The position numbers and the translations under genes are program-made. Under the pieces are notes generated by a model, which did no database searches, had not been told where the DNA came from, and saw only the letters and a program-made list of their open reading frames with translations. A DNA stretch of 47,322 nt from a virus. The stretch spans positions 1 to 47,322 of the IMG/VR virus record IMGVR_UViG_3300025118_002664, one strand, 5' to 3'. Within the stretch, counting starts at the first letter, position 1. Every line of letters starts with the position of its first letter. This document shows positions 726 to 45,977 of this stretch, piece after piece.

Positions 726-1076
726 ATGGCAATATCATATTTATGGAAGATCAGTTCATTACAGGTAGAGTATAGTTCGGCCAGTTTGTCGGATGTAGTT
801 ACTAGTGTGGGGTGGTCATATAGTGGCAATATTGCATCTACTTCAAGTTTGGGTATTTCTGGTAGTTTTGGTGGTAACAGTAGTGGGAGGGCTGGTGTTG
901 TCCCTGCTTCTTCCGCTAGTTTTGTTAGTTATGAAAATTTAACGGAACCTCTTGTTATAGGGTGGGTAACCGCTTCATTGGGAGATGCAACCATAACAAA
1001 CATACAAACTGACATAAGTAAGTCTATTGCAGGACAACTTAATCCAATTGTTGGACGTAAGGTTAAACCTTGGTAG
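726..1076 (+). CDS. Small protein, first copy of a tandem paralogous pair
   Basis: This 116-residue protein has unknown function. It is clearly paralogous to the next gene: both begin MAI-Y-W, share YSSASL, TSSLG, GSF, WVTASLGD and QLNP, and end in PW at nearly equal length. The composition is rich in Ser, Thr, Val and Gly with a single-domain beta-rich look, and there is no signal peptide. An AGGAG ribosome binding site lies about 10 bases before the ATG. It sits between a fibre-like gene and tail genes, so a virion or tail-associated role is plausible, but this is only inferred from position. Confidence 0.7.
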   Translation: MAISYLWKISSLQVEYSSASLSDVVTSVGWSYSGNIASTSSLGISGSFGGNSSGRAGVVPASSASFVSYENLTEPLVIGWVTASLGDATITNIQTDISKSIAGQLNPIVGRKVKPW

Positions 1077-1916: not shown

Positions 1917-3773
1917 ATGATACATGATTCTGCTGAATCGGTTGTTTTCCCGTTCGGCAAATACAAGGGATATACCCTTGCTCATGTAATCAGAGAACAC
2001 CCACATTACATATATTGGATAAGAGACAATGCGGACTTTTCTCCTCTTTGGAGAGAGGCCGTTTCTCTTGCGCTCCAAAATAAGGATGTTGGTCAATTAG
2101 ACCTACCCCGCGTAAAAACAACCCAAGTATTTGGGAAACAAAAAAAGACGGTAGAAATATCAGAAGTCAATGAGACTACTGCTAAAATTAATATGCCGTA
2201 TGACAGATCTTTGATTGAACGGTTTAAGTTTGAGATTGATGGTCGCAAATGGAATGATAAAGAGAAACATTGGCGGTTTCCAATTGTTCAACTTCCAAAA
2301 GTAGTTTCTATTATAAAAAATTACGAGGTTAAATGTACTCGTAAAATTAAGAAACTTTATAAAGAACTTTTAGAAGAAACTAAAGTCCGACATGAGGTTC
2401 GTGAGAAGGAAGACACGGATTTCGAAATGCCAGAATTAAATCTGCCTTTATTTAATTTCCAACGCGTTGGTGTAGAGTTTGTATATCATACGGGTGGTAG
2501 AGCTATGATTGCTGATCAGCCAGGATTGGGCAAAACTGTTCAGGCGATTGCGTATGCTCGGTTGATGAAGTTTAAAACTCTGGTTATTTCTCCATTATCT
2601 GTGGTACTTAATTGGAGAAAAGAGATTGAGAAATTTACGAATTTAGATTCTACTATTTGGACCACCAAAGATGTAGATGGTGATTTAGATAATCAATTTC
2701 ATATCATAAATTATGATGCAGTTAGAAAAGTCCATGATGTTTTGGCAAAACTGGATTTTGATATGTTGGTATGTGATGAAGCTACTTTTCTAAAAAACCG
2801 TAATACCTTACGGTTTAAATCTATCCTTGGTTCGTGGAGAGAGAGAAAACGATTTCCTGGCATTAAAACAGATCATATTATTTTCTTAACTGGAACTCCG
2901 GTCATGTCCAGACCCATAGAAGCGTTTACTCTTCTTAATGTATTGGATCGTGAACGATTTAATAATTTCTATCATTTTACTCAGCGTTATGGTGGATGGA
3001 AAGGTATGCCGGTTAGAAACTTAAAAGAACTTCACGAACGAACTAAAGATCTAACCATTCGGAGAAAGAAATCAGAAGTTCTACCCGAATTACCAGATAA
3101 ACAAAGAAATGATTTGTATATTGATATGTCATTTTCAGAACGAAAGGAATATAAAAATATTCTAGATGAGATTTTTGGAGAGTGGCGTTTTTCTGGAAAA
3201 CCATCTGTAGCGTCTATGCCAAAGATTCAATCGTATTTGACCGATCAAAAGATTCCAAGACTTAAAGAAATTATTGATGAGTATTTGGATAATGATAGGT
3301 CCATTTTAGTATTTGGTTGTTTCATTGATCCTCTAAAACGATTAGCGGAACATTATGGATATGATGCTGCTTTATTTCACGGTGGCATGAACAAAAAGAA
3401 ACGCCAAGACGCAATAGATCGGTTGGTGAATGGAGAGGCTAAGGTTGGGTTCTTCTCTCTTAAAGCTGCGGGCATGGGTATTGACGGACTACAATCCGTA
3501 ATAGATACGGTGATATTTATAGACAGGGATTGGGTTCCTGCTAACCACGAACAGGCAGAAGATCGAATCCATAGAATTGGCCAAGATAATAAGGTTCAGG
3601 TTTATTATATGACGGTTGAAAATACTATTGATGTGTACATGAGTGAGTTGATAGGCGAGAAACAACAGATTGCATCACAGATAGTAGATGGTGAGATTAT
3701 AAATTCAGTTAACACAAAATCTATCTTTAATGACTTTGTGAAGAAACTATCTTGGGAAAAACTGAAATTGTAA
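1917..3773 (+). CDS. SNF2-family (SMARCAL1/HARP-like) DNA helicase/translocase with N-terminal ExoX-C-like domain
   Basis: This predicted ATP-driven DNA translocase has 618 residues. Residues 10-35 (FPFGKYKGYTL, YIYWI) resemble the small domain found at the C-terminus of exonuclease X and in DUF3820 proteins. Residues 90-135 look like a HARP annealing-helicase domain. The SNF2 motor follows: motif I QPGLGKT at 201-207, motif II DEAT at 287-290 (a variant of DEAH), motif III LTGTP at 324-328, a second lobe with FHGG at 487-490, and motif VI QAEDRIHRIGQ at 546-556. HARP proteins anneal RPA-coated strands and remodel stalled forks, so a role in phage fork repair is inferred, analogous to T4 UvsW. 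Its place beside tail genes is odd for a replication enzyme. Confidence 0.85.
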   Translation: MIHDSAESVVFPFGKYKGYTLAHVIREHPHYIYWIRDNADFSPLWREAVSLALQNKDVGQLDLPRVKTTQVFGKQKKTVEISEVNETTAKINMPYDRSLIERFKFEIDGRKWNDKEKHWRFPIVQLPKVVSIIKNYEVKCTRKIKKLYKELLEETKVRHEVREKEDTDFEMPELNLPLFNFQRVGVEFVYHTGGRAMIADQPGLGKTVQAIAYARLMKFKTLVISPLSVVLNWRKEIEKFTNLDSTIWTTKDVDGDLDNQFHIINYDAVRKVHDVLAKLDFDMLVCDEATFLKNRNTLRFKSILGSWRERKRFPGIKTDHIIFLTGTPVMSRPIEAFTLLNVLDRERFNNFYHFTQRYGGWKGMPVRNLKELHERTKDLTIRRKKSEVLPELPDKQRNDLYIDMSFSERKEYKNILDEIFGEWRFSGKPSVASMPKIQSYLTDQKIPRLKEIIDEYLDNDRSILVFGCFIDPLKRLAEHYGYDAALFHGGMNKKKRQDAIDRLVNGEAKVGFFSLKAAGMGIDGLQSVIDTVIFIDRDWVPANHEQAEDRIHRIGQDNKVQVYYMTVENTIDVYMSELIGEKQQIASQIVDGEIINSVNTKSIFNDFVKKLSWEKLKL

Positions 3774-3815: not shown

Positions 3816-4580
3816 ATGAGTGATTTAATGTATCCCGTAGAAATTGTTACCCTTCCAAGTCAAGGGAAATATTATCCAAAGGGACACCCGTTACGAGAAA
3901 GTGGTGGTCAGTTGGAATTGAAAGGTATGACCGCCAAAGAAGAAGATATTTTGACAAGTACCAATTTGATTGCAAATGGTACGGTTATGGACAGGTTAAT
4001 GGAAAGTTTGGTGGTTCATAAGGGTGTAAAACCAGCAGATTTAAATACAGGAGATCTTAATGCTGTCGTGATCGCTTCCAGAGTTTTAGCTTATGGTAAA
4101 GATTATCCGATAGAAATTGATTGTGACTCATGTGAAGAAAAAATAGAACATACAGTAGATTTGACTCAGTTGGAAAGTCCAGATGATTTGATTGATGTCA
4201 ATGAAGATGGACATCATCAGTTTGTTACGGAAACGGGATTGAATATTACTGTTAGACCGTTAACGCGTGGTGATGAACTGGATATAGAAAATACTGACAA
4301 AATATTGAGTAAAAGATATAGCAAGGGACTTACAACTAGTGTAACATCTAGATTGAAACAGATTATTGTTTCTATTAATGGCGAAACAGATAAAAGTATT
4401 CTGTCAAGCATGGTGGAAAATTTGGTTGTTAAAGATTCTAAATTAATTAGAGAGGAATTTGACAAAATTAACCCATCAATTGATATGACAATGGAAGTTA
4501 CTTGTGAAGGTTGTGGTCACACGATGAAGGGGGGTATGCCCATTGGGCTAAACTTTTTTTGGCCTGACATCGGAATATAG
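3816..4580 (+). CDS. 26: Baseplate hub assembly protein, gp26-like (T4 baseplate family)
   Basis: This 254-residue protein matches the T4-like gp26 baseplate family. The N-terminus has the typical VTLPSQGKYYP and LKGMTAKEEDIL blocks. Two CxxC knuckles (CDSC near 105 and CEGC near 231) resemble the Cys pairs of gp26 proteins and may bind zinc. In T4 the protein is needed for hub assembly and behaves as an assembly factor. The 3' end (4551-4580) contains a T7 run where a +1 or -2 shift would replace the last residues with a 73-residue extension from the overlapping frame. The start is the ATG at 3816. An earlier ATG at 3811 gives only Met-Leu-stop overlapping this start. The GGAG site at 3801-3804 lies in the loop of a weak 5-bp hairpin. 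Confidence 0.75.
   Translation: MSDLMYPVEIVTLPSQGKYYPKGHPLRESGGQLELKGMTAKEEDILTSTNLIANGTVMDRLMESLVVHKGVKPADLNTGDLNAVVIASRVLAYGKDYPIEIDCDSCEEKIEHTVDLTQLESPDDLIDVNEDGHHQFVTETGLNITVRPLTRGDELDIENTDKILSKRYSKGLTTSVTSRLKQIIVSINGETDKSILSSMVENLVVKDSKLIREEFDKINPSIDMTMEVTCEGCGHTMKGGMPIGLNFFWPDIGI
4554..4560 (+). promoter_or_regulatory. Candidate programmed frameshift site (T7) at the end of gp26
   Basis: In the gp26 frame the codons are AAC TTT TTT TGG. The frame used by the short downstream ORF has a stop (TAA, 4549-4551) immediately before this run and is then open through 4779. A +1 or -2 slip on the seven Ts would join gp26 residue 248 to GLTSEYRLAVHDLL and onward. P2 E/E' also slips on a T-rich heptamer, though by -1. 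A homopolymer sequencing error is the main alternative. Confidence 0.5.
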
Positions 4581-4599
4581 ATTAGCGGTTCACGATTTA

Positions 4600-4782
4600 T
4601 TGGTTACTCTTAGCATGAATGTGGATGGTTTCTCTTTTGAAACATGGTATAACATGCCAATTCAACTGAGGAATCATTATGTTACGGTTATAAAAGAAAA
4701 GGTTGAAGAAAAAAATAAAAGAGCACAGTTACAAGCACAACAACAAACACAACGTTTTTCCAAGTTTAGAGGAACTAAATAA
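4600..4782 (+). CDS. Short overlapping frame: probable frameshift extension of gp26 (gp51/tail-assembly-chaperone-like)
   Basis: This small frame ends at 4782, one base into the tape-measure gene. It has no convincing start: the first possible codons are TTG at 4600 and ATG at 4615, and neither has a Shine-Dalgarno sequence. The frame is open from 4552, inside gp26, and the residues there (GLTSEYRLAVHDLLVTLSM) read like real protein continuing into the block FSFETWYNMPIQLRNHYV. I recognise this second block as similar to the extensions of phage tail-assembly chaperones. The C-terminus is Lys/Gln-rich and probably helical. The likely product is a gp26 fusion of about 321 residues. Independent translation coupled to gp26 remains possible. 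Confidence 0.6.
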   Translation: MVTLSMNVDGFSFETWYNMPIQLRNHYVTVIKEKVEEKNKRAQLQAQQQTQRFSKFRGTK

Positions 4783-6320
4783 TGGCTGTATTAAAACTTG
4801 CTGTTGAGGATCGAGATTTATTTATTGAACTTAAAGATGCACTGTTAAAGTTAGAGGGTGGTATTCAACAGAAGTCTGAAAGCGATGAAGAAAATACTAG
4901 GCAAAGGGGTCAATCTGAAGGCAGTCTTACTACTATGCTTAATAAGCTTTCTTTCGGAATCCCCGGCACAGGCATACGACTCTTTGGACTTGGTGATTTT
5001 TTAACACAACTTAAAAAGGCAAAAGGGCCCCTAGAAAGATTTACGGTAGGGTTGGGAATGGGTGTTACTGCTCTTACCGCGTTCAATGAAGGTTTAGCTG
5101 TTTTAGCTAGGCAATTAGGTGGCACGACCCAAAGACAAGCTTTGGGGTTCGGGTTCGGAGCAGCTGGTCAGATGATAGGAATAAATGACGGACTTCGACT
5201 CAGAGGGCCCGGCGGAGCAGCTAGAGCGGTTCGTGGGGCTGGGCAAATCGCGGGAGAATTTGGCGGATTGGTTAGTCCACAGGCCGCAGCACGATTTGGC
5301 GATTTAGCACTTGATCTGGGTGTTAGTACTAACGATTTGACAAGATTAACAAGACTTTTCCAAGCCAATATACTGGGAACAGAAGCAGCTATAAATCAGT
5401 TTAGGCAAGTTGGTATTGGTGGCACAGTTGCTGCTACAGAATTAGCTAAAAGTGGAGACGCAGTAGCTCGAGCAGGTGGAGAGTTTAATAAATTTATTGT
5501 TCGTGGTATTGCTAATGCTAAAAAGCTTGGGTTGGAATTTTCTGAAATAGATAAGAATTTAACGGGATTTGCTACAGATTTTGAAGGAACCGTAGAAGGT
5601 TTTGCTCAATTAAGAGCGGTCCTTCCCGGCTTTGCTGTTGATTTTGGTCAATTGATGTCTGTTGCTTTAACAGGAACGACAGAGGAATATACCGATTTAA
5701 TCAGAACTGGATTGGTTGGGGCAGGAGTTGGAGTTAACACACAGTTAAGACGGGACCAAGCCGGCATAATAAGGCAAATGACTGGCTTTTCCGCAGACCA
5801 AGTACAAAGAATTGTTGATAATCAAGAAGTTGATTTCGATTTCAAAGTAGATCTTGATACCAAAAGAAATAGTTTATTGCAATCCCAAATCACTATACTC
5901 ATGAGCATTCTTGGCGCGGTTGGCGGTGCGGGTGGTAGCGGACTTGTGACCGCGGGCGCGACGAGTGCACTCGCACTGTCGAACCCGAAAGCAAGGGCCG
6001 GCGCGGCTGGCGTCATGAGGCTTGGATCTAAATGGGCGATGAGAGCCGGTATTGCTGGTCTTATCGCTGGGGGTTTGGCTTACGGTGCTACAGAGTTGTT
6101 TATGGACGATTTTGTTTATCGGCCAGGCAAACCCCCCATTCCGTTTAATCCCAAAGACACTATAGTTGGAGTAAAAAATCCTGCAAGTTTAGGTGGGGGT
6201 GTCGATACCAATGCACTCGCAGGTGCTATGGCTGGTGCTTTGAATGGTATAACAGTTGAGATGAGAGATCTTGATAAGGCTATAATGAGATTACCCGAAG
6301 GTGCTATAAGGAACGCCTGA
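4782..6320 (+). CDS. Tape-measure-like tail protein (gp29 position)
   Basis: This 512-residue protein is rich in Ala and Gly, largely helical and has few Cys. Residues about 370-443 are strongly hydrophobic (ILMSILGAVGG, AGIAGLIAGGLAYGATELF), as in tape-measure proteins that carry membrane-active segments. It follows the assembly-chaperone pair directly (TAATG overlap) and precedes the tube-cap, LysM and hub genes, the usual place for a tape measure; T4 gp29 is about 590 residues. It would set tail-tube length from the hub and be ejected with DNA. The codon region around 5925-6010 is unusually GC-rich compared with the neighbours. The function is assigned from context and composition, since the sequence itself carries no diagnostic motif. 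Confidence 0.6.
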   Translation: MAVLKLAVEDRDLFIELKDALLKLEGGIQQKSESDEENTRQRGQSEGSLTTMLNKLSFGIPGTGIRLFGLGDFLTQLKKAKGPLERFTVGLGMGVTALTAFNEGLAVLARQLGGTTQRQALGFGFGAAGQMIGINDGLRLRGPGGAARAVRGAGQIAGEFGGLVSPQAAARFGDLALDLGVSTNDLTRLTRLFQANILGTEAAINQFRQVGIGGTVAATELAKSGDAVARAGGEFNKFIVRGIANAKKLGLEFSEIDKNLTGFATDFEGTVEGFAQLRAVLPGFAVDFGQLMSVALTGTTEEYTDLIRTGLVGAGVGVNTQLRRDQAGIIRQMTGFSADQVQRIVDNQEVDFDFKVDLDTKRNSLLQSQITILMSILGAVGGAGGSGLVTAGATSALALSNPKARAGAAGVMRLGSKWAMRAGIAGLIAGGLAYGATELFMDDFVYRPGKPPIPFNPKDTIVGVKNPASLGGGVDTNALAGAMAGALNGITVEMRDLDKAIMRLPEGAIRNA

Positions 6321-20858: not shown

Positions 20859-20872
20859 GTGAGGGTAGCAAC

Positions 20873-23461
20873 ATTTACCAAAATATCTATCTAGCAAAAG
20901 ATAAGATTTATATATGGGATGATAAGAAAGGGTTTTATATCATTGATGCAAAAGAGTATCAATATGCCTATCGTAGAAATCCAAATGGAAGTCATGTAAC
21001 TTTCACCGGAGAACATTGTTCAAAGACGAGAAAATTTGAACGTGGAGAGGCCGGAGTTTTTGAAAGTGATCTTCCGTTAGAAACCAGAGTCTTAACAGAC
21101 ATCTATCTAGAAGATGATGAACCATCCGAAGGACACCGTTTGGTGTTCTTTGATATTGAGGTTTCTATGGAAGATAATCTTCCTAACGTAGAGACTGCTA
21201 ATAATAAAATTACTTCCATCGCTCTTTACGATCAAATCACAGATGAGTATCATGTTTTGGCTTTAGATGAATATGGGTCAAAAGACAATTATGATAAGGA
21301 CAATACCTACGTTAAATTCTTTTCAGATGAATACGATCTCCTTTCTTTCTTTTTAGATCTGTGGGAAGGCATAAACCCAACAATCATTACAGGGTGGAAT
21401 ACTAATTATTTCGATGTTCCATATCTCTATCGTAGATTAAGTGAGGTGTTGGGCAGGGGCCAGGCCAATAGACTTTCTTCTATTAATAAAGTTAAATTTT
21501 CCAAATACAGAAAGAAATATCAAATTGCTGGTATCTCTTCGTTAGATTATTTAGATCTTTATAGAAAGTTTACTTACATTGAACAACCCAATTATCGTCT
21601 TGATACGATTGGTAAGTTGGAAGTTGGAATGGGCAAGGTTGAATATGACGGTACCTTAGATGAACTGTTTGAACAAGACTTAGATAAATTTGTTGAATAT
21701 AATTTGACTGATGTAAAGATCGTTGTAGAGCTTGAAAAGAAAATGAAATTGATTGAGCTTGTCCGTGGTATCTGTCACATTGGTCATGTACAATATGAAG
21801 ATTATGGATTTTCATCTCGCTTTCTTGAGGGAACAATTGTAACCTATCTACATCGTAAGGGTTTGATTGTTACCGACAAACAGGCAAATGCACGACAGAT
21901 GATGAATGATCGTGATGATACTGATAAGTTTATAGGAGCCTATGTTAAAGTTCCCAATCCTTCAAAATGTGATTGGGTATTTTCTTTAGATCTACAGTCG
22001 CTATATCCTTCCATTATTATGTCTCTTAATATTTCACCAGAGACGAAGGTTGGGAGTGTTACTAATTGGAATAATAAGAGTTTTGTAGATGGTGAAATGG
22101 ATAAGTTTTCTGTTGAAACAGATGGGATAGTTGATTTAAATAGAGAACAATTTGATTCGTTTATGGCCGAACATAACTTAGCTATAAGTTCTAATGGTAT
22201 TTTATACCAACAAAATAAAAGAGGAATCATTCCAGAAATTCTTGAACGGTGGTTTGATCAGAGAATTGAATTTCAGAAGCTGATGAATAAACATGCAAGT
22301 GAAGGCGATATTGAAATGGCACAATTTTATGATCGCAGACAACACATTCAAAAGATTTTCTTAAATTCATTGTATGGTGTTTTGGGACTTCCTATTTTCA
22401 GATTCTTTGATTTGGATAACGCCGTTGCTGTCACTACTACAGGTCAGGATGTCATTAAAAATTCTGAGGTATTTGTGAATGATTTATTTGAACAGTTGGG
22501 GGCCGAACCAAAGAGTAGTGCAGAGTTGGCAAAATACGAATTAGCTCTCAAACAGGAAGCGGTTAAACGGAAAGAAAGATTTGTAGCTCCTTCAGAAAAA
22601 GATTGGTGTATTTACATTGATACTGATAGTTTATATTTTTCTTCCCTTCCACTGAAACATAAGTTGAAAGGGGATTTACAATCAGCTACAATTAAACTTT
22701 CTCGTTTTGTGGAACAAAAATTAAATGAACATTATGATAAGATAGCTGTTGATTATTTTAATTGTCCTAATCATAGATTTCATATTAAGGGTGAAATAAT
22801 TGCTAAGTCTGGAATTTGGATTACAAAGAAAAGATATGCAATGCTGAAAGTTTATGATTTAGAAAAGAATACTGAGATTGAACCTAAGTTGATTGTTAAG
22901 GGACTAGATATTGTTCGTTCAACATTTCCAATTGTTTTTAAAGAGTATATGAGAAACTTTATTATAAGTTTGTTGAACGATACGGACAAGATTGATATAG
23001 ATAAAGTGATGGTAGATTTTGTTGGTGGTCTTAAAGATGTTCCGTTTAGGAGGATTGCAAGAAACACAGCAGCTAAGAACGTAACGAAGTACAAAACATC
23101 AAATGATAGGTTGGGACATTATATGAAGAGTACTCCGATGCATGTAAAGTCGGTGATAAATTATAATCATCTTTTGAAAGAGTTTGGAATTGAAAAACAG
23201 TTCCCTCCAATCAATGATGGAGAAAAGATAAAGTATGTAATGTTACGACAGAACCCATATCATATTGATACTTTGGCGTTTAAAGATTACGAAGATCCTC
23301 CACAGATTGTGAAGTTTTTAAAAACGTATTCCGATCATCAAAGATTGTTTGATGCTGAGTTGAAAAAGAAGTTACAAGATTTCTATAATGCTTTGGGTTG
23401 GGGAGAGTTGCCCATCAACATTAAAGTTGATAGAAATATTTTAAATATGTTCGGTCTATGA
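20873..23461 (+). CDS. 43: Family B replicative DNA polymerase gp43, probable ATT start
   Basis: This is the phage replicative polymerase with proofreading exonuclease. From an ATT at 20873 it has 862 residues, close to T4 gp43 (898) and its marine relatives. The first conventional codon with clear family similarity on both sides is TTG at 21140, which would delete about 89 conserved residues such as YQNIYLAKDKIYIWDD and RVLTDIYLEDDEPS. The upstream frame is open and homologous-looking back to 20873, has no ATG, GTG or TTG before a TAG at 20852, and has GAGGG 7 bases before the ATT. Exonuclease motifs are FFDIE (92-96), NTNYFDVP (176-183) and YNLTDVKIV (276-284). Polymerase motifs are LDLQSLYPSI (372-381), KIFLNSLYG (494-502) and IYIDTDSLYF (580-589). 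Confidence 0.9.
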   Translation: MYQNIYLAKDKIYIWDDKKGFYIIDAKEYQYAYRRNPNGSHVTFTGEHCSKTRKFERGEAGVFESDLPLETRVLTDIYLEDDEPSEGHRLVFFDIEVSMEDNLPNVETANNKITSIALYDQITDEYHVLALDEYGSKDNYDKDNTYVKFFSDEYDLLSFFLDLWEGINPTIITGWNTNYFDVPYLYRRLSEVLGRGQANRLSSINKVKFSKYRKKYQIAGISSLDYLDLYRKFTYIEQPNYRLDTIGKLEVGMGKVEYDGTLDELFEQDLDKFVEYNLTDVKIVVELEKKMKLIELVRGICHIGHVQYEDYGFSSRFLEGTIVTYLHRKGLIVTDKQANARQMMNDRDDTDKFIGAYVKVPNPSKCDWVFSLDLQSLYPSIIMSLNISPETKVGSVTNWNNKSFVDGEMDKFSVETDGIVDLNREQFDSFMAEHNLAISSNGILYQQNKRGIIPEILERWFDQRIEFQKLMNKHASEGDIEMAQFYDRRQHIQKIFLNSLYGVLGLPIFRFFDLDNAVAVTTTGQDVIKNSEVFVNDLFEQLGAEPKSSAELAKYELALKQEAVKRKERFVAPSEKDWCIYIDTDSLYFSSLPLKHKLKGDLQSATIKLSRFVEQKLNEHYDKIAVDYFNCPNHRFHIKGEIIAKSGIWITKKRYAMLKVYDLEKNTEIEPKLIVKGLDIVRSTFPIVFKEYMRNFIISLLNDTDKIDIDKVMVDFVGGLKDVPFRRIARNTAAKNVTKYKTSNDRLGHYMKSTPMHVKSVINYNHLLKEFGIEKQFPPINDGEKIKYVMLRQNPYHIDTLAFKDYEDPPQIVKFLKTYSDHQRLFDAELKKKLQDFYNALGWGELPINIKVDRNILNMFGL

Positions 23462-29545: not shown

Positions 29546-30952
29546 ATGAAGCATAAATGGTTACCTAAAGAAGAAAGAAAGACTATGTTATTCCTTTCGG
29601 ATGACATGCGCATACCCTCCGGCATTGGTACAATGACCCGTGAAATAATAGAGGGAACTTGTCATCGTTACAATTGGGTTCAGTTGGGAGCAGCTATCAC
29701 CCATCCAGAGGCTGGATCAGTTATTGATGTATCTGAAGATATCCACAATACAACTGGAGTAGAAGATCCATCTATAACAATTTATCCATATAACGGTTAT
29801 GGCGATCAGTTTATTCTTAGAAGATTACTACATGAACATGGCCCATCTGCCATCCTTCACTTCACCGATCCTAGATATTGGCATTGGCTTTATAGTATGG
29901 AGAATGAAGTTCGTCAGAACACTCCTATTTTCTTTTATACGATTTGGGACGATCTTCCCTATCCATATTATAATGAAAACTTTTATCGTTCTTGTGATTG
30001 GTTGGGTTGTATTTCTAAACAAACATATAATATTGTAAAACAAGTTCGTGCTCGTAAAGAACCTGTAGAAGATTGGCAACTTTCTTATGTTCCTCATGGA
30101 ATTAATCCAAACAAGTTTTATAGGATTAAAGAAGAAGATGAGGAACATGAGGCGATTGTTGATATGAAAACTAAACTTTTTGGGGATAAAGAATATAAGT
30201 TTGTAGTTTTTTATAATTCACGAAACATTCGTAGAAAGATGACAAGTGATATTATGATGGCGTTTAGTCAGTTTAGAGATCAGTTACCGGATGATGAGAA
30301 AGATGATGTTGTTTTGTTATTTCACACCGAACCTTCTGATGAAAATGGAACTGATTTAAGAGCGGTTCATCGTGATTTGTTTCCAGATATTAATTTGATA
30401 TTCACAGAAAGTAAATTTGAACAAGATGGAATTAATGGTCTTTATAATATTTCAGATGTTACAATTAACATTTCAAGTAATGAGGGTTTTGGTTTGAGTG
30501 TGGCAGAAAGTCTTATGGCCGAAACTCCTGTGATTGTAAATGTTACAGGAGGTCTTCAAGATCAATGTGGGTTCCGTGATGCAGAAGGTAACCTTCTAGA
30601 TCCTGACATACATTATACATTTGAACAGGGATCTAATCATAATGGTAAATATAGAGATCATGGTGAGTGGGTGGTTCCGGTGTTCCCTTCTGCTATAAAC
30701 ATTGTGGGTTCACCTGTTACTCCGTATATTTTTGATGACCGTTGTGCTATACCAGATGTTACTCAGGCCATAATGACATGGTATCAGAGAGGCGATGAGA
30801 AGAGAAGAAAAGCAGGATTAGCTGGTAAGGAATTTTGTTTAGGTGAGGGCGGACTTAACTCAGAGAATATGTGTAATTTGTTTATTGAAAATATGGATAT
30901 AGCTATGACAAACTTTAAACCAAGACAACGATTTTTCTTGGAGGCAGTATAA
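29546..30952 (+). CDS. Glycosyltransferase, GT4-like (GT-B fold)
   Basis: This 468-residue enzyme is predicted to transfer a sugar from a nucleotide donor. The N-terminal part has FLSDDMRIPSGIGTMTREII, the acceptor-side Gly-rich loop of GT4 enzymes. The linker VPHGINPNKF is the typical VxNGVD-like block, and the C-terminal half has SSNEGFGLSVAESLMAETPVI, the EGFGL...EAxAxGxPVI donor-binding signature. It is the first gene of the long sugar operon, with GAGG upstream, and its stop overlaps the next start. Acceptor and donor cannot be told from sequence. Confidence 0.85.
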   Translation: MKHKWLPKEERKTMLFLSDDMRIPSGIGTMTREIIEGTCHRYNWVQLGAAITHPEAGSVIDVSEDIHNTTGVEDPSITIYPYNGYGDQFILRRLLHEHGPSAILHFTDPRYWHWLYSMENEVRQNTPIFFYTIWDDLPYPYYNENFYRSCDWLGCISKQTYNIVKQVRARKEPVEDWQLSYVPHGINPNKFYRIKEEDEEHEAIVDMKTKLFGDKEYKFVVFYNSRNIRRKMTSDIMMAFSQFRDQLPDDEKDDVVLLFHTEPSDENGTDLRAVHRDLFPDINLIFTESKFEQDGINGLYNISDVTINISSNEGFGLSVAESLMAETPVIVNVTGGLQDQCGFRDAEGNLLDPDIHYTFEQGSNHNGKYRDHGEWVVPVFPSAINIVGSPVTPYIFDDRCAIPDVTQAIMTWYQRGDEKRRKAGLAGKEFCLGEGGLNSENMCNLFIENMDIAMTNFKPRQRFFLEAV

Positions 30953-32382
30953 TGGATAGGCCAAGAACCCCAGAAGTTCTATCTCAATTGTATCGGCCCT
31001 TATGTGTAGTGCGGGCTCCCATAGCTACTCGTTCTGGATACGGAGGAATGAGTAGAGATATTGTACGACATCTTATTGAGTATGACAAATATAATGTTGA
31101 AATTCATTCAATTAATTGGGGTCAAACTCCTATGAATGCTTTGGATGTTAATAATCCTGCTGATAAAATGATACTTGAAAGAATTGTTCCCGAAGAGTTT
31201 CCAGTTCAACCTGACTTATATATTTCTATTTCAATTCCTACTGAGTTTAATCCAGTGGGAAAATATAATATTGGAATTACAGCTGGAATTGAAACTACTC
31301 AGGCTTCGGTTGAATGGGTTGAGGCGATGAATCGGATGGATGTGAATTTTGTAATATCTGAACACGCTAAGGCCGTTTTTGATACATCAAAGTATCAAGC
31401 TCATAATGAACAGGGAGAACAAGTTGGAGTGGTGGAATGTCTCAAACCTATTGAAGTTTTACATAATTGTATAGACACCTACATTTATAAAAAAATAAAT
31501 CGATCTCAACTGAAATCCTCTGTAAAAAGTATGATAGATACGATACCAGAGAAATATAATTATATGTTTGTTGGACATTGGTTAAAAGGTGATGTGGGAC
31601 AAGATAGAAAAAATGTTGGTCTTTTAGTTAAAATATTTTATGAACTGTTTAAGAAAGATGAATTTGACAGTTCCCAGTGGGGTGGTCGGCCTGGACTTAT
31701 TTTAAAAACAGGTGAAGTGGATTCTTCTATTATAGATCGTGAAAAAACTCTATCTAAACTGAAACAAATTAAAGAGTCGGTGGAGCTTGAAGAAGGTGAG
31801 TCTTTGCCAAATGTTTATCTTGTTCATGGAGATCTGACTGATGAGGAATTGAGTTCTCTCTATAATCACAATAAGGTAAAGACTCACATTACCTTTACCA
31901 AGGGTGAAGGATTTGGTCGCCCCCTTCTTGAAGCTTCATTAACTGGTAAACCTATTATTGCGCCGGGGTGGTCAGGCCATATGGATTTTTTAAATCCACA
32001 ACAAGCCATCTTGTTAGGCGGTGGGTTAGAAGATATTCATCCATCTGCGTTCTATGATAATATTATTATTGAGGGAGCAAAATGGATGCAAGTAGATCCA
32101 AACATGGCCGCTACTGGTATGGCAGAAGCCTTTCAGAATTATAAACCGTGGCGTGCTAAAGCAAATAAGTTGGCTAAAGCTAATAAAGATAATTTTAATT
32201 ATAAAAGGATTAGATCAGATATGTGGAAGTTGCTTGATCAATATGTTCCAGAATTTGAGGAACCACCAGAACAGAAGATGGAATTAGAATTAAATTTACC
32301 TTCATTGACAAAGGTGAAAGAACAAGATCCAATTAATGTTCCAGAAATTAAATTACCCAAATTACTGAAGGTAGAAAAATGA
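30952..32382 (+). CDS. Glycosyltransferase, GT4-like (GT-B fold)
   Basis: This second GT-B enzyme has 476 residues. It shows ATRSGYGGMSRDIVRHLIEY near the N-terminus, IEVLHNCIDTYIY in the linker, YMFVGHWLKGDVGQDRKN at the start of the donor domain and KGEGFGRPLLEASLTGKPII as the donor-binding signature. The C-terminal 40 residues are Lys/Pro-rich and probably disordered. It overlaps the previous stop (TAATG) and the next start (ATGA), so it is translated with its neighbours. It and the preceding enzyme are related and may have arisen by duplication. Confidence 0.85.
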   Translation: MDRPRTPEVLSQLYRPLCVVRAPIATRSGYGGMSRDIVRHLIEYDKYNVEIHSINWGQTPMNALDVNNPADKMILERIVPEEFPVQPDLYISISIPTEFNPVGKYNIGITAGIETTQASVEWVEAMNRMDVNFVISEHAKAVFDTSKYQAHNEQGEQVGVVECLKPIEVLHNCIDTYIYKKINRSQLKSSVKSMIDTIPEKYNYMFVGHWLKGDVGQDRKNVGLLVKIFYELFKKDEFDSSQWGGRPGLILKTGEVDSSIIDREKTLSKLKQIKESVELEEGESLPNVYLVHGDLTDEELSSLYNHNKVKTHITFTKGEGFGRPLLEASLTGKPIIAPGWSGHMDFLNPQQAILLGGGLEDIHPSAFYDNIIIEGAKWMQVDPNMAATGMAEAFQNYKPWRAKANKLAKANKDNFNYKRIRSDMWKLLDQYVPEFEEPPEQKMELELNLPSLTKVKEQDPINVPEIKLPKLLKVEK

Positions 32383-33590
32383 AGATAAGTTTTATTGTGC
32401 CAAGTTATAATAATTTAAGATATTTGAAAAATGCATATCATAGTATTAGAACTTGGGAAAGTGAAGAACATGAAATTGTTATACTAGATGATGCTAGTGT
32501 AGATGGAACAGCTGAATGGTTGGATTCCTTAAATGATCCTAATTTAATAATTTGGAAAAACGAAACTGGAAAACGGATGGGTCACACTATTACATATGAT
32601 ATTGGAGTAAATCTTTCTACAAATGATATCTTTGGTATTTTTCATGCTGATATGTTTCTGGGTGAAAACTATGTAAAAAATATAGTTAAACATTTAGAAC
32701 GCGGAAAGGTAGTAACAGCTACTAGGGTTGAACCTCCGTTGCATCCAAGTGGTAGAGAAAAAATAACAAGAGACTTTGGTGTATGGCCAGAAGATTTTAG
32801 AGAAGATGACTTTATTAAGTTTGTGAGAGAGGAACAGGAGAGAAGTAAAGATCAAATTACCAAGGGTATCTTTGCTCCTTGGTATATGTATAAGGAAGAT
32901 TATTTAAAAATTGGTGGACATGATCATCTTTTCGCTCCATTTCCATATGAAGACAGTGATATCTTTCAGAGATTTCTTTTGGCTGGATATGAAGTTTTAC
33001 AGTCTAGAGATGCACTTGTTTATCATTTGACATGTCGTGGTCATAAGTGGACCGATGATGATATTATTGGGAAGGTAGATGATGATTTTGAGGAGTTAGA
33101 AGTGAATGCTAGAAAAAACTTCATTCGTAAGTGGAATTCTTGGATTATGAATGATGAGTGGATGCATCCAATTATGATTCCAAAGTATAATACTTGTTTA
33201 ATTGCAGATAATGTTGAGAGTGTTGAACAATTAGATAATTTAGAACCTTGGTTTTGCCATACAGTAATCGATTCATTTGATTTGGTTGCACAGTATTTGT
33301 ATAGAGAACAACCAAATACCACTTTGGATATGTCAGAACGTATTTCTAGTAAAGAAACGGAAGAATATTCTAATTATGGTGTAAAGATTTATATTGATTT
33401 ACATCAATTGACTCCCGACGAGTATGGTAATCTTGGAAAAATGAATTTAATTTTAGATCAATTAAATAAGAATGGGTCACTTCAATTAAATTTAAGTGGT
33501 GAATATCAACTTGGAAATATAAAAGTTCAGGTAGATTCGTTAGATAATATTGTAGATGGTCTAATCATGGCAGAACCTTATAATGAATAA
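32379..33590 (+). CDS. Glycosyltransferase family 2 (GT-A fold)
   Basis: This 403-residue protein has a GT2 domain in residues 1-220: SFIVPSYNNLRYLKNAYHSI, IVILDDASVDGTAEWL, and FGIFHADMFLG with the DxD-like metal site, then APFPYEDSDIFQRFLLAGY with the ED catalytic base. The C-terminal 180 residues contain a separate acidic beta-rich domain of unknown role (SRDALVYH onward). It would add a sugar to a growing glycan. It overlaps both neighbours by 4-8 bases. Confidence 0.8.
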   Translation: MKISFIVPSYNNLRYLKNAYHSIRTWESEEHEIVILDDASVDGTAEWLDSLNDPNLIIWKNETGKRMGHTITYDIGVNLSTNDIFGIFHADMFLGENYVKNIVKHLERGKVVTATRVEPPLHPSGREKITRDFGVWPEDFREDDFIKFVREEQERSKDQITKGIFAPWYMYKEDYLKIGGHDHLFAPFPYEDSDIFQRFLLAGYEVLQSRDALVYHLTCRGHKWTDDDIIGKVDDDFEELEVNARKNFIRKWNSWIMNDEWMHPIMIPKYNTCLIADNVESVEQLDNLEPWFCHTVIDSFDLVAQYLYREQPNTTLDMSERISSKETEEYSNYGVKIYIDLHQLTPDEYGNLGKMNLILDQLNKNGSLQLNLSGEYQLGNIKVQVDSLDNIVDGLIMAEPYNE

Positions 33591-34617
33591 AAGAGTTTTA
33601 ATTACTGGTGGTGCTGGTTTTATAGGACACACATTAATACATAACATTTTAAAACAAACCAATTGGGATGTTGTTACCATAGATAGATTGGATTATTCTG
33701 GAAACTTAAATCGTTTAGATGATATTTTAGGTGACATTCCCAAGGAAGAAAAACATAGGCTTGATATTATTTTTCACGATCTCCGTGCTGAATTGAATTC
33801 ACAAATTTGTGCTGCTATTGGCGAGGTTGATTACATTTTACACTTGGCCGCATCAAGTCACGTTGATAGAAGTATTGATCATCCAATGGAATTTGTTATG
33901 GATAATGTTGTTGGTACTTGTAATATTTTAAACTTTGCAAGAGATCAACAAAATCTATCTAGGTTCATTTATTTTAGTACAGACGAAGTATTTGGTCCAG
34001 CCCCAGAAGGTATCAGTTATGCAGAACGTGACAGATATAATTCAACAAATCCATATTCTGCTACTAAGGCTGGGGCCGAAGAACTGTGTGTTTCATATGA
34101 AAACTCATATGGTATGCCAATTTATATCACCCATACTATGAATGTATTTGGTAATAGGCAACACCCAGAAAAATATATTCCATCTACAATTAGAAAAGTT
34201 CGTGATGGAAAGCTTGTTACTATTCACAGTGACGCAACGAAGATTACGGCAGGAAGCCGACATTATATTCATACTAGTGATGTGTCTGAAGCTATTCTAT
34301 TCTTATTGAGATTATCCGATGAAGGTCATGTATTTAATACTGATTTTGGCAATGCCAAGTGTCCTAAGTTTAATCTTACTGGTAAGGAAGAGGTTGATAA
34401 TTTGGAATTGGCTAGAAGAATTGCTAGGGCTGTTGGTGAAGAATTGAAATATGAGATGATTGATTATCATTCCGCTAGGCCAGGGCACGATTTAAGATAT
34501 GCCATTAGTGGTGATTACATGAAAGAACTTGGGTGGGAACCTCTTGTGTCTTTGAATGAAAGGATTCAACAGGTGGTAGAGTGGTCCCTTGAGAATGACA
34601 GGTGGTTAAAAACATAA
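33583..34617 (+). CDS. rmlB: dTDP-glucose 4,6-dehydratase-like (RmlB)
   Basis: This 344-residue extended short-chain dehydrogenase has the NAD-binding GGAGFIGHTLI near the N-terminus, IDRLDYSGNLNRL, HLAASSHVDRSIDHP, the STDEVFGP block with catalytic Asp/Glu, and YSATKAGAEELC with the Tyr-x3-Lys pair. These are diagnostic for RmlB-type dehydratases, which make dTDP-4-keto-6-deoxyglucose. RmlC- and RmlD-like genes follow within 5 kb, but no RmlA nucleotidyltransferase is seen in the window. The host would have to supply dTDP-glucose. Confidence 0.85.
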   Translation: MNKRVLITGGAGFIGHTLIHNILKQTNWDVVTIDRLDYSGNLNRLDDILGDIPKEEKHRLDIIFHDLRAELNSQICAAIGEVDYILHLAASSHVDRSIDHPMEFVMDNVVGTCNILNFARDQQNLSRFIYFSTDEVFGPAPEGISYAERDRYNSTNPYSATKAGAEELCVSYENSYGMPIYITHTMNVFGNRQHPEKYIPSTIRKVRDGKLVTIHSDATKITAGSRHYIHTSDVSEAILFLLRLSDEGHVFNTDFGNAKCPKFNLTGKEEVDNLELARRIARAVGEELKYEMIDYHSARPGHDLRYAISGDYMKELGWEPLVSLNERIQQVVEWSLENDRWLKT

Positions 34618-44957: not shown

Positions 44958-45977
44958 ATGAAGAGTGCCTTGGTTACAGGAATTAATGGACAAGATGGTA
45001 GTTATATGGCTGACTTCCTATTGGATAAAGGATATAAAGTATTTGGGATGGAAAGACGGTCATCTAGAATTAATAGAGACAACACTGGACACCTTGAAGA
45101 CAATGAGAATTTTCAGTTTTTAAATGGAGATTTGGTTGATCAAAATTCTTTACTGAGGTGTTTGAAGATCTCTAAACCCGATGAAATCTATAACTTCGCT
45201 GCTCAGTCATTTGTACAGGAGAGTTGGAATACACCTGAATATACAGGTGATGCCACGGGGTTAGGCGTGTTAAGGATGTTAGAGGCCATACGAGAGTATG
45301 GAAAGGAAGTTCGTTTCTATCAGGCGTCCTCCAGTGAGATGTTCGGCCGAATGGTAGAAAACCCTGCTAAAGAGTCTACGCCTTTCTATCCTCGTTCACC
45401 GTATGGAGTTGCGAAGTTATACGGGCATTGGATTGCAAAGAATTATCGTGAAAGTTATGACATGTATAATGTTTCTGGAATCTTATTTAATCACGAAAGT
45501 GAACGCAGAGGGTGGGAATTTGTAACTCGTAAGATTACAATGAATGTAGCTAAGATAGCATTGGGGTTGAGTGATACCTTTGCTCTTGGTAATTTAGATT
45601 CTTTTAGGGATTGGGGATATGCTCCTGACTTTATAGAAGCGGCTTGGTTGATGTTACAACAAGACGAACCTGACGATTATGTGATTGCTACAGGTGAATC
45701 AAAATCCATCCGCGACTTTTTAGATTCCGCTTTTGGTTATGTAGATATTCCAGATTGGGAAAAGCATGTTACTCAAGACCCACGGTTCTTCCGTCCAGCG
45801 GAAGTAGATGTTCTTTGTGGTGATTACTCTTTAGCTAAAGAAAAGTTGGGATGGGAACCAAGAACTCCATTTAATCACTGGGTGAGAACTATGGTTGATA
45901 ACGATCTTCGTTTAACTGCTCATTCACAGGAATCGGAACTTATCACTCCTGCTGCTTGGCACACTAATTATTATTAA
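44958..45977 (+). CDS. gmd: GDP-mannose 4,6-dehydratase
   Basis: This 339-residue enzyme converts GDP-mannose to GDP-4-keto-6-deoxymannose, first step towards GDP-fucose or GDP-rhamnose. Diagnostic blocks are [48 protein letters not shown] with the catalytic Ser and Glu, [15 protein letters not shown] with Tyr-x3-Lys, and [19 protein letters not shown]. No fucose synthase is adjacent; an SDR upstream may supply the next step. GGAGAAGG precedes the ATG. It is the last gene of the island. Confidence 0.93.

What the first reader, a model, noticed from the sequence alone, without database searches (positions are those of the whole stretch)
4549..4782. Candidate programmed frameshift fusing a gp26-like protein to a chaperone-type extension just before the tape measure
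Seen: the gp26 frame runs AAC TTT TTT TGG. The other frame has TAA at 4549-4551, is then open to 4779, and has no start with a ribosome binding site. The residues encoded inside the overlap (GLTSEYRLAVHDLL) look like genuine protein leading into FSFETWYNMPIQLRNHYV. Known: gpG/gpGT of lambda and E/E' of P2 are tail-assembly chaperone pairs made by frameshift directly upstream of the tape-measure gene. Inference: a +1 or -2 slip on the T7 run makes a fusion of about 321 residues, the T4-like counterpart of that system.
Basis: partly seen in the sequence, partly recalled or inferred. Interest (0 to 1): 0.8.

Follow-up and report, generated by a model that had tools for sequence, protein, structure and literature searches.

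The report
Frameshifted tail-assembly chaperone of T4-like phages
A T4-like phage gene carries a conserved run of seven T's at which some ribosomes probably slip one base, making a short and a long version of a protein that helps build the phage tail; the trick is already known in phages, but here it is backed by about 180 related sequences and appears to use a +1 slip.

Summary
The gp26-like gene (3816-4580, PF12322, E=6.5e-17) reaches AAC TTT TTT TGG CCT GAC at 4551-4568. The +1 frame carries a conserved, mostly helical domain that begins at the slip site and ends at 4782, where the next gene starts. All 80 relatives found with the extension, and all 97 found with gp26 through an N-terminal pattern blind to the site, have the same overlapping frames. 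Of 85 dereplicated loci in the second set, 84 keep TTT TTT T. The extension is under purifying selection (dN/dS about 0.07-0.21) and has no conserved start. This rejects sequencing error, chance and independent initiation. Variants TTT CTT TGG, CTT CTT TGG and TTC TTT C break the T-run but keep a slippable YUU_U or UUU_C, favouring +1 ribosomal slippage over transcriptional slippage; at a pure T7, -2 is not excluded. The kind is known: T4-like tail-assembly chaperones were identified by Vladimirov et al. 2022 (not held; seen through citing papers), and T4 gp51 scores as a gp26-family protein over its whole length. Possibly new: the +1 motif with its spread, and a link between the extension and DUF6760 of contractile injection systems.

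The parts
3816..4580 (+). gp26-like protein, short chaperone form (TAC-N), 254 aa, 0 frame
   Evidence: PF12322 E=6.5e-17; phrog_150 E=2.7e-19; AlphaFold2 pLDDT 92
4554..4568 (+). slip site: TTT TTT TGG CCT GAC in the 0 frame (T7 at 4554-4560); likely P-site slip codon 4557-4559
   Evidence: read directly; TTT TTT T in 84 of 85 dereplicated unbiased loci; YTT TTT/CTT variants
4552..4782 (+). +1-frame extension (TAC-C); 73 residues are added from 4561 to 4779; stop TAA 4780-4782
   Evidence: open frame; 80/80 and 97/97 relatives; dN/dS 0.07-0.21 in relatives; helical model pLDDT 84
4578..4580 (+). 0-frame stop TAG ending the short form, six codons after the slip codon
   Evidence: read directly; 0-frame stop 3-10 codons after the site in the relatives
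4782..6320 (+). presumed tape-measure gene (512 aa); identity inferred from position only
   Evidence: no family hit; annotated tape measure follows the extension in Flavobacterium phage immuto and Bacillus phage SP-15

Best explanation
This is the tail-assembly chaperone locus of a T4-like contractile-tailed phage. Most ribosomes stop at 4578-4580 and make the short form (TAC-N). A fraction slips +1 when the P-site tRNA-Phe on UUU (4557-4559) re-pairs one base forward on UUU while UGG waits in the A site; they continue in the +1 frame and make a 321-residue long form (TAC-NC) with a helical C-terminal domain. By analogy with lambda gpG/gpGT the two forms bind the tape-measure protein, recruit tube subunits and then leave the particle. 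Shown here: the overlapping frames, their conservation, selection on slip site and extension, gene order. Inferred: that slippage occurs, its direction and efficiency, and the chaperone role.
For: Same frame relation in 80/80 and 97/97 relatives; TTT TTT T in 84/85 dereplicated loci, nominal chance about 1e-24 from Phe codon usage, ignoring relatedness; first extension Gly codon GGC in 66 of 68 loci against 35 of 285 elsewhere, next Leu CTN in 84 of 85 against 184 of 421; purifying selection on the extension; no conserved start; cultured phages immuto, Mel-JY01, SP-15, LIS04, GXN1 and RM378 show the same arrangement; C-interrupted variants keep YUU_U; T4 gp51 is a full-length gp26-family protein; S-PM2 gp26+gp51 joined aligns with the fused family, prob 92.
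Against: No protein or reporter data. Slip efficiency unknown. No clearly conserved stimulator: no strong Shine-Dalgarno-like peak and only weak folding signal. Listeria phage LIS04 has UUU UUU AGU, where +1 at the second UUU pairs poorly (slip at the first UUU, or -2, fits better). Part of the codon conservation could come from the conserved 0-frame residues W-P.
Confidence: 0.9

Rival explanations
1. The same fusion is made by a -2 ribosomal slip (as in phage Mu) instead of +1, giving one extra Phe (322 residues).
For: On a pure U7 run both re-pairings are perfect; -2 is documented for Mu tail chaperones (PMC5009743); LIS04 UUU UUU AGU fits -2 at least as well.
Against: In GXN1 (GAA TTC TTT CGT) and LR756508 (AAC TTT CTA TTC) the -2 codons do not pair well while +1 (UUU_C to UUC) does.
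Confidence: 0.12
2. RNA polymerase slips on the T7 run and a mixed mRNA population gives both proteins (transcriptional slippage).
For: T7 is conserved in 84 of 85 dereplicated loci.
Against: 19 of the first-set rows carry TTTCTTT or CTTCTTT, and immuto, GXN1 and LR756508 also have interrupted runs, yet keep the two frames. From general knowledge, seven T's is short for efficient slippage.
Confidence: 0.04
3. The extension is a separate protein made by its own start or by re-initiation after the gp26 stop, as DUF6760 appears to be in contractile injection systems.
For: In actinobacterial injection-system loci the DUF6760 gene mostly starts at a codon overlapping the stop of the upstream gene; S-PM2 and RM378 annotators chose internal starts.
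Against: The conserved domain begins at or before the slip site; 21 of 86 loci have an ATG, and only 4 of 86 any start codon with a good SD, up to 12 codons past it.
Confidence: 0.04
4. Sequencing or assembly error in a homopolymer (six T's read as seven).
For: Six T's would give one continuous frame; homopolymers are error-prone.
Against: None of about 180 independent loci, cultured phages included, has the continuous frame.
Confidence: 0.005

Closest known systems
T4-like tail-assembly chaperones gp26/gp51 (Vladimirov, Gautam and Davidson 2022, Virology 566:9-15)
   Same: Same gp26 family (PF12322, phrog_150) and a similar small C-terminal domain. T4 gp51 matches the gp26 family profile over its full length (E=2.6e-84) and the gp51 profile phrog_634.
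   Different: T4 carries the long form as a separate gene (PMC10885494). Here one gene with an overlapping +1 frame. Whether the 2022 paper lists this +1 group could not be checked: the paper is not held.
Cyanophage S-PM2 gp26 / 57-aa gp51
   Same: Second frame overlaps gp26 at an FF codon pair in a U-run; the joined protein aligns with this family (prob 92, E=7e-7).
   Different: The second frame is -1 (U_UUU_UUC), not +1.
Lambda gpG/gpGT and P2 E/E'
   Same: Short and frameshifted long chaperone directly upstream of the tape measure (PMC5009743).
   Different: Different protein family at sequence level; lambda shifts -1. The best fold match of the short form is the HK97 tail assembly chaperone (2ob9), but at a non-significant E=1.2.
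DUF6760 (PF20546) of contractile injection systems
   Same: Similar small helical domain: 12 of 30 extensions match, best E=3.2e-5; profile-profile prob 69, E=4e-5.
   Different: A separate gene, mostly with a stop-start overlap, not a frameshift; next to eCIS_core or baseplate genes.
prfB (RF2) +1 site CUU UGA C
   Same: P-site YUU re-pairs +1 on UUU; CUU variants occur here before UGG C (PMC10885494).
   Different: The A-site codon is a sense codon (UGG/UAC), not a stop, and no prfB-like Shine-Dalgarno sequence directly upstream was seen.

Membership tests
[quoted passage not shown]
   80/80 and 97/97 loci
Tail-assembly chaperone made by programmed frameshift | Located directly upstream of the tape-measure gene | tested here: inconclusive
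   Next ORF overlaps the extension stop but has no family hit; annotated tape measure follows in immuto and SP-15
Tail-assembly chaperone made by programmed frameshift | Long form actually produced, in minor amount | not testable with these tools
   Needs proteomics or reporters
Tail-assembly chaperone made by programmed frameshift | Binds tape measure and tube protein; absent from virions | not testable with these tools
   Needs binding and virion assays
T4 gp26 family (PF12322) | Profile match above the curated cut-off | tested here: met
   62.4 bits against a cut-off of 24.5
DUF6760 (PF20546) | Profile match of the window's own extension | tested here: not met
   No hit for the window protein; 12 of 30 relatives hit, best E=3.2e-5: a distant relation, not membership
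+1 (rather than -2) frameshifting | Variants that permit only +1 re-pairing | tested here: inconclusive
   GXN1 and LR756508 favour +1; T7 itself allows both; LIS04 is ambiguous

The most novel reading that the evidence does not exclude
The C-terminal domain of the T4-like long chaperone and DUF6760 of contractile injection systems are one ancestral domain whose link to the N-terminal chaperone has been rewired repeatedly at one point: +1 slip (this clade), -1 slip (S-PM2, Atu_ph07), a separate fused gene (T4 gp51) and stop-start coupling (injection systems). The switch of slip direction at a shared Phe-Phe codon pair would be a natural experiment in how frameshift signals evolve.
Probability: 0.45. 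Interest if true: 0.55.

Novelty: new member of a known kind. Interest (0 to 1): 0.42.

Why it matters
It shows that a stretch usually left as a gap or a tiny hypothetical ORF in marine, flavobacterial, thermophilic and Firmicute T4-like genomes is the conserved second half of the tail chaperone. It supplies a well-conserved candidate +1 site (YUU_UNN_CCU) in a gene class where -1 is more usual, and a possible link to an uncharacterised domain of contractile injection systems. None of the cultured relatives looked at has the joined product annotated.

Tried and rejected
Sequencing error: no relative with six or eight T's. Independent start: none conserved. Transcriptional slippage: interrupted runs. 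Stimulators: no clear conserved Shine-Dalgarno-like peak; folding z about -0.8 downstream and -1.0 upstream with an approximate shuffle, too weak to call. Extension model against the PDB: nothing. Fused profile against PDB sequences: nothing meaningful. Profile against single T4 gp51: only weak local matches; family scans were more telling. Plasmid search with the extension: none. Two loci (L053, L066) were first mis-sited by a regular expression and checked by hand. The translation (320 aa) contains a second, spurious four-letter step near its end and was not used.

Full report
Observation. The window (a 47,322-base virus record) holds a gp26-like ORF at 3816-4580 and, in the +1 frame, an open stretch 4552-4779 after a TAA at 4549-4551. 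The 0 frame reads AAC TTT TTT TGG CCT GAC ATC GGA ATA TAG. The extension's stop overlaps the next ATG (TAATG, 4780-4784). The gp26 assignment is firm (PF12322 E=6.5e-17, phrog_150 E=2.7e-19). UvsX, a T4-type DNA polymerase and a clamp loader elsewhere in the window fit a T4-like virus.

Conservation, first set. The extension as query found 201 relatives in viral contigs; 80 were kept. All 80 need a +1 (or -2) shift from a gp26-like frame, and the 0 frame stops shortly after the site. One search pattern covered FFGLTSEY, so amino-acid conservation there is partly by selection of hits; codon choice is not. Counting the window and L002-L004 as well, the 0-frame codons are TTT TTT TGG CCT in 65 rows (63 plus L053 and L066), TTT CTT TGG CCT in 17 and CTT CTT TGG CCT in 2.

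Conservation, unbiased set. An alignment of gp26 relatives, searched through a pattern near its N terminus, gave 80 viral loci and 17 usable loci in genome collections. All 97 have the +1-frame extension. After removal of near copies, 84 of 85 have TTT TTT T, followed mostly by GG CCT (66) or AC CCT (14); the last has TTC TTT CAT. Phe codons elsewhere in these genes are 78% TTT, so TTT TTT throughout has a nominal chance of about 1e-24, ignoring relatedness. The first extension Gly codon is GGC in 66 of 68 loci against 35 of 285 elsewhere in the extensions, and the next Leu is CTN in 84 of 85 against 184 of 421. Part of that may come from the conserved 0-frame W-P.

Selection and starts. Beyond the overlap, pairs of extensions show dN/dS of 0.07-0.21 where dS is measurable. 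No start codon is conserved in the extension frame.

Cultured phages. The same arrangement sits unannotated, or as a truncated or separate hypothetical ORF, in Flavobacterium phage immuto, Microcystis phage Mel-JY01, Bacillus phage SP-15, Listeria phage LIS04, Streptococcus phage GXN1 and Rhodothermus phage RM378. In Synechococcus phage S-PM2 the annotated 57-aa gp51 lies in the -1 frame at U_UUU_UUC in gp26; Agrobacterium phage Atu_ph07 looks alike, and the metagenomic record LR756511 probably too.

Direction. YUU followed by U (main clade), or UUU followed by C (GXN1, SP-15, a Bacilli MAG), lets the P-site tRNA re-pair one base forward. This is the prfB type of slip (PMC10885494), and UUU_CGU resembles the influenza PA-X site named in the title of PMC3498833. 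A C inside the run argues against transcriptional slippage. For T7 itself -2 cannot be excluded, and LIS04 is ambiguous.

Function. In lambda the short and long forms bind the tape measure and recruit the tube protein, and neither stays in the virion (PMC5009743). T4 gp26 and gp51 are listed as hub assembly chaperones (PMC3004832). Vladimirov et al. 2022 identified the T4-like chaperone genes. That paper is not held; citing papers say that some T4-like phages carry a short gene and a fused long gene instead of a frameshift (PMC10885494) and that others have poly-T slip signals (PMC12846349). Consistent with that, T4 gp51 matches the gp26 family profile over its full length (E=2.6e-84), and the joined S-PM2 protein aligns to the window family (prob 92, E=7e-7). 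The short form models well (pLDDT 92); its top PDB match is the HK97 tail assembly chaperone, at a non-significant E=1.2. The extension models as three helices (pLDDT 84). The next ORF is called the tape measure by position only.

Injection systems. Twelve of 30 extensions match DUF6760 (best E=3.2e-5), though the window's own does not, and profiles agree at E=4e-5, prob 69. Eleven actinobacterial DUF6760 loci were examined: in most the gene starts at a codon overlapping the stop of the upstream gene. One lies beside an eCIS_core protein and others beside baseplate genes. In several the upstream protein looks gp26-like by eye, but no Pfam hit supports that. No held paper names DUF6760, so the novelty of the link is not established.

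Verdict. The finding is correct and well supported by comparative genomics. It is a new member of a known kind, with a likely +1 direction worth recording.

Noticed in passing
window 20866-23461: The T4-type DNA polymerase ORF (21140-23461) has only a TTG start and lacks about 118 N-terminal profile positions; the same frame is open upstream to about 20866 without ATG/GTG/TTG, and another frame just upstream reads HFSYVRVATFTKIS: possible second frameshift, sequence error or odd start.
   Followed up: partly
window 726-1076 and 1147-1503: Two tandem DUF7936 (PF25590) proteins, probably a duplication, upstream of the SNF2-type helicase at 1917-3773.
   Followed up: no
window 29546-32382, 33583-34617 and 44958-45977: A run of genes for glycosyltransferases and two copies of a nucleotide-sugar epimerase, suggesting a sugar-modification block.
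   Followed up: no
L094 3150-3364 (S-PM2) and L009 3750-4013 (Atu_ph07): The corresponding chaperone extension is in the -1 frame at U_UUU_UUC; current annotation uses an internal start or a short ORF.
   Followed up: partly
L195, L197, L203 around 1485-1500; L207 9258-9262: In actinobacterial injection-system loci the upstream gene's stop overlaps the DUF6760 start in a conserved GGGGAATCGTGA sequence, suggesting translational coupling.
   Followed up: partly
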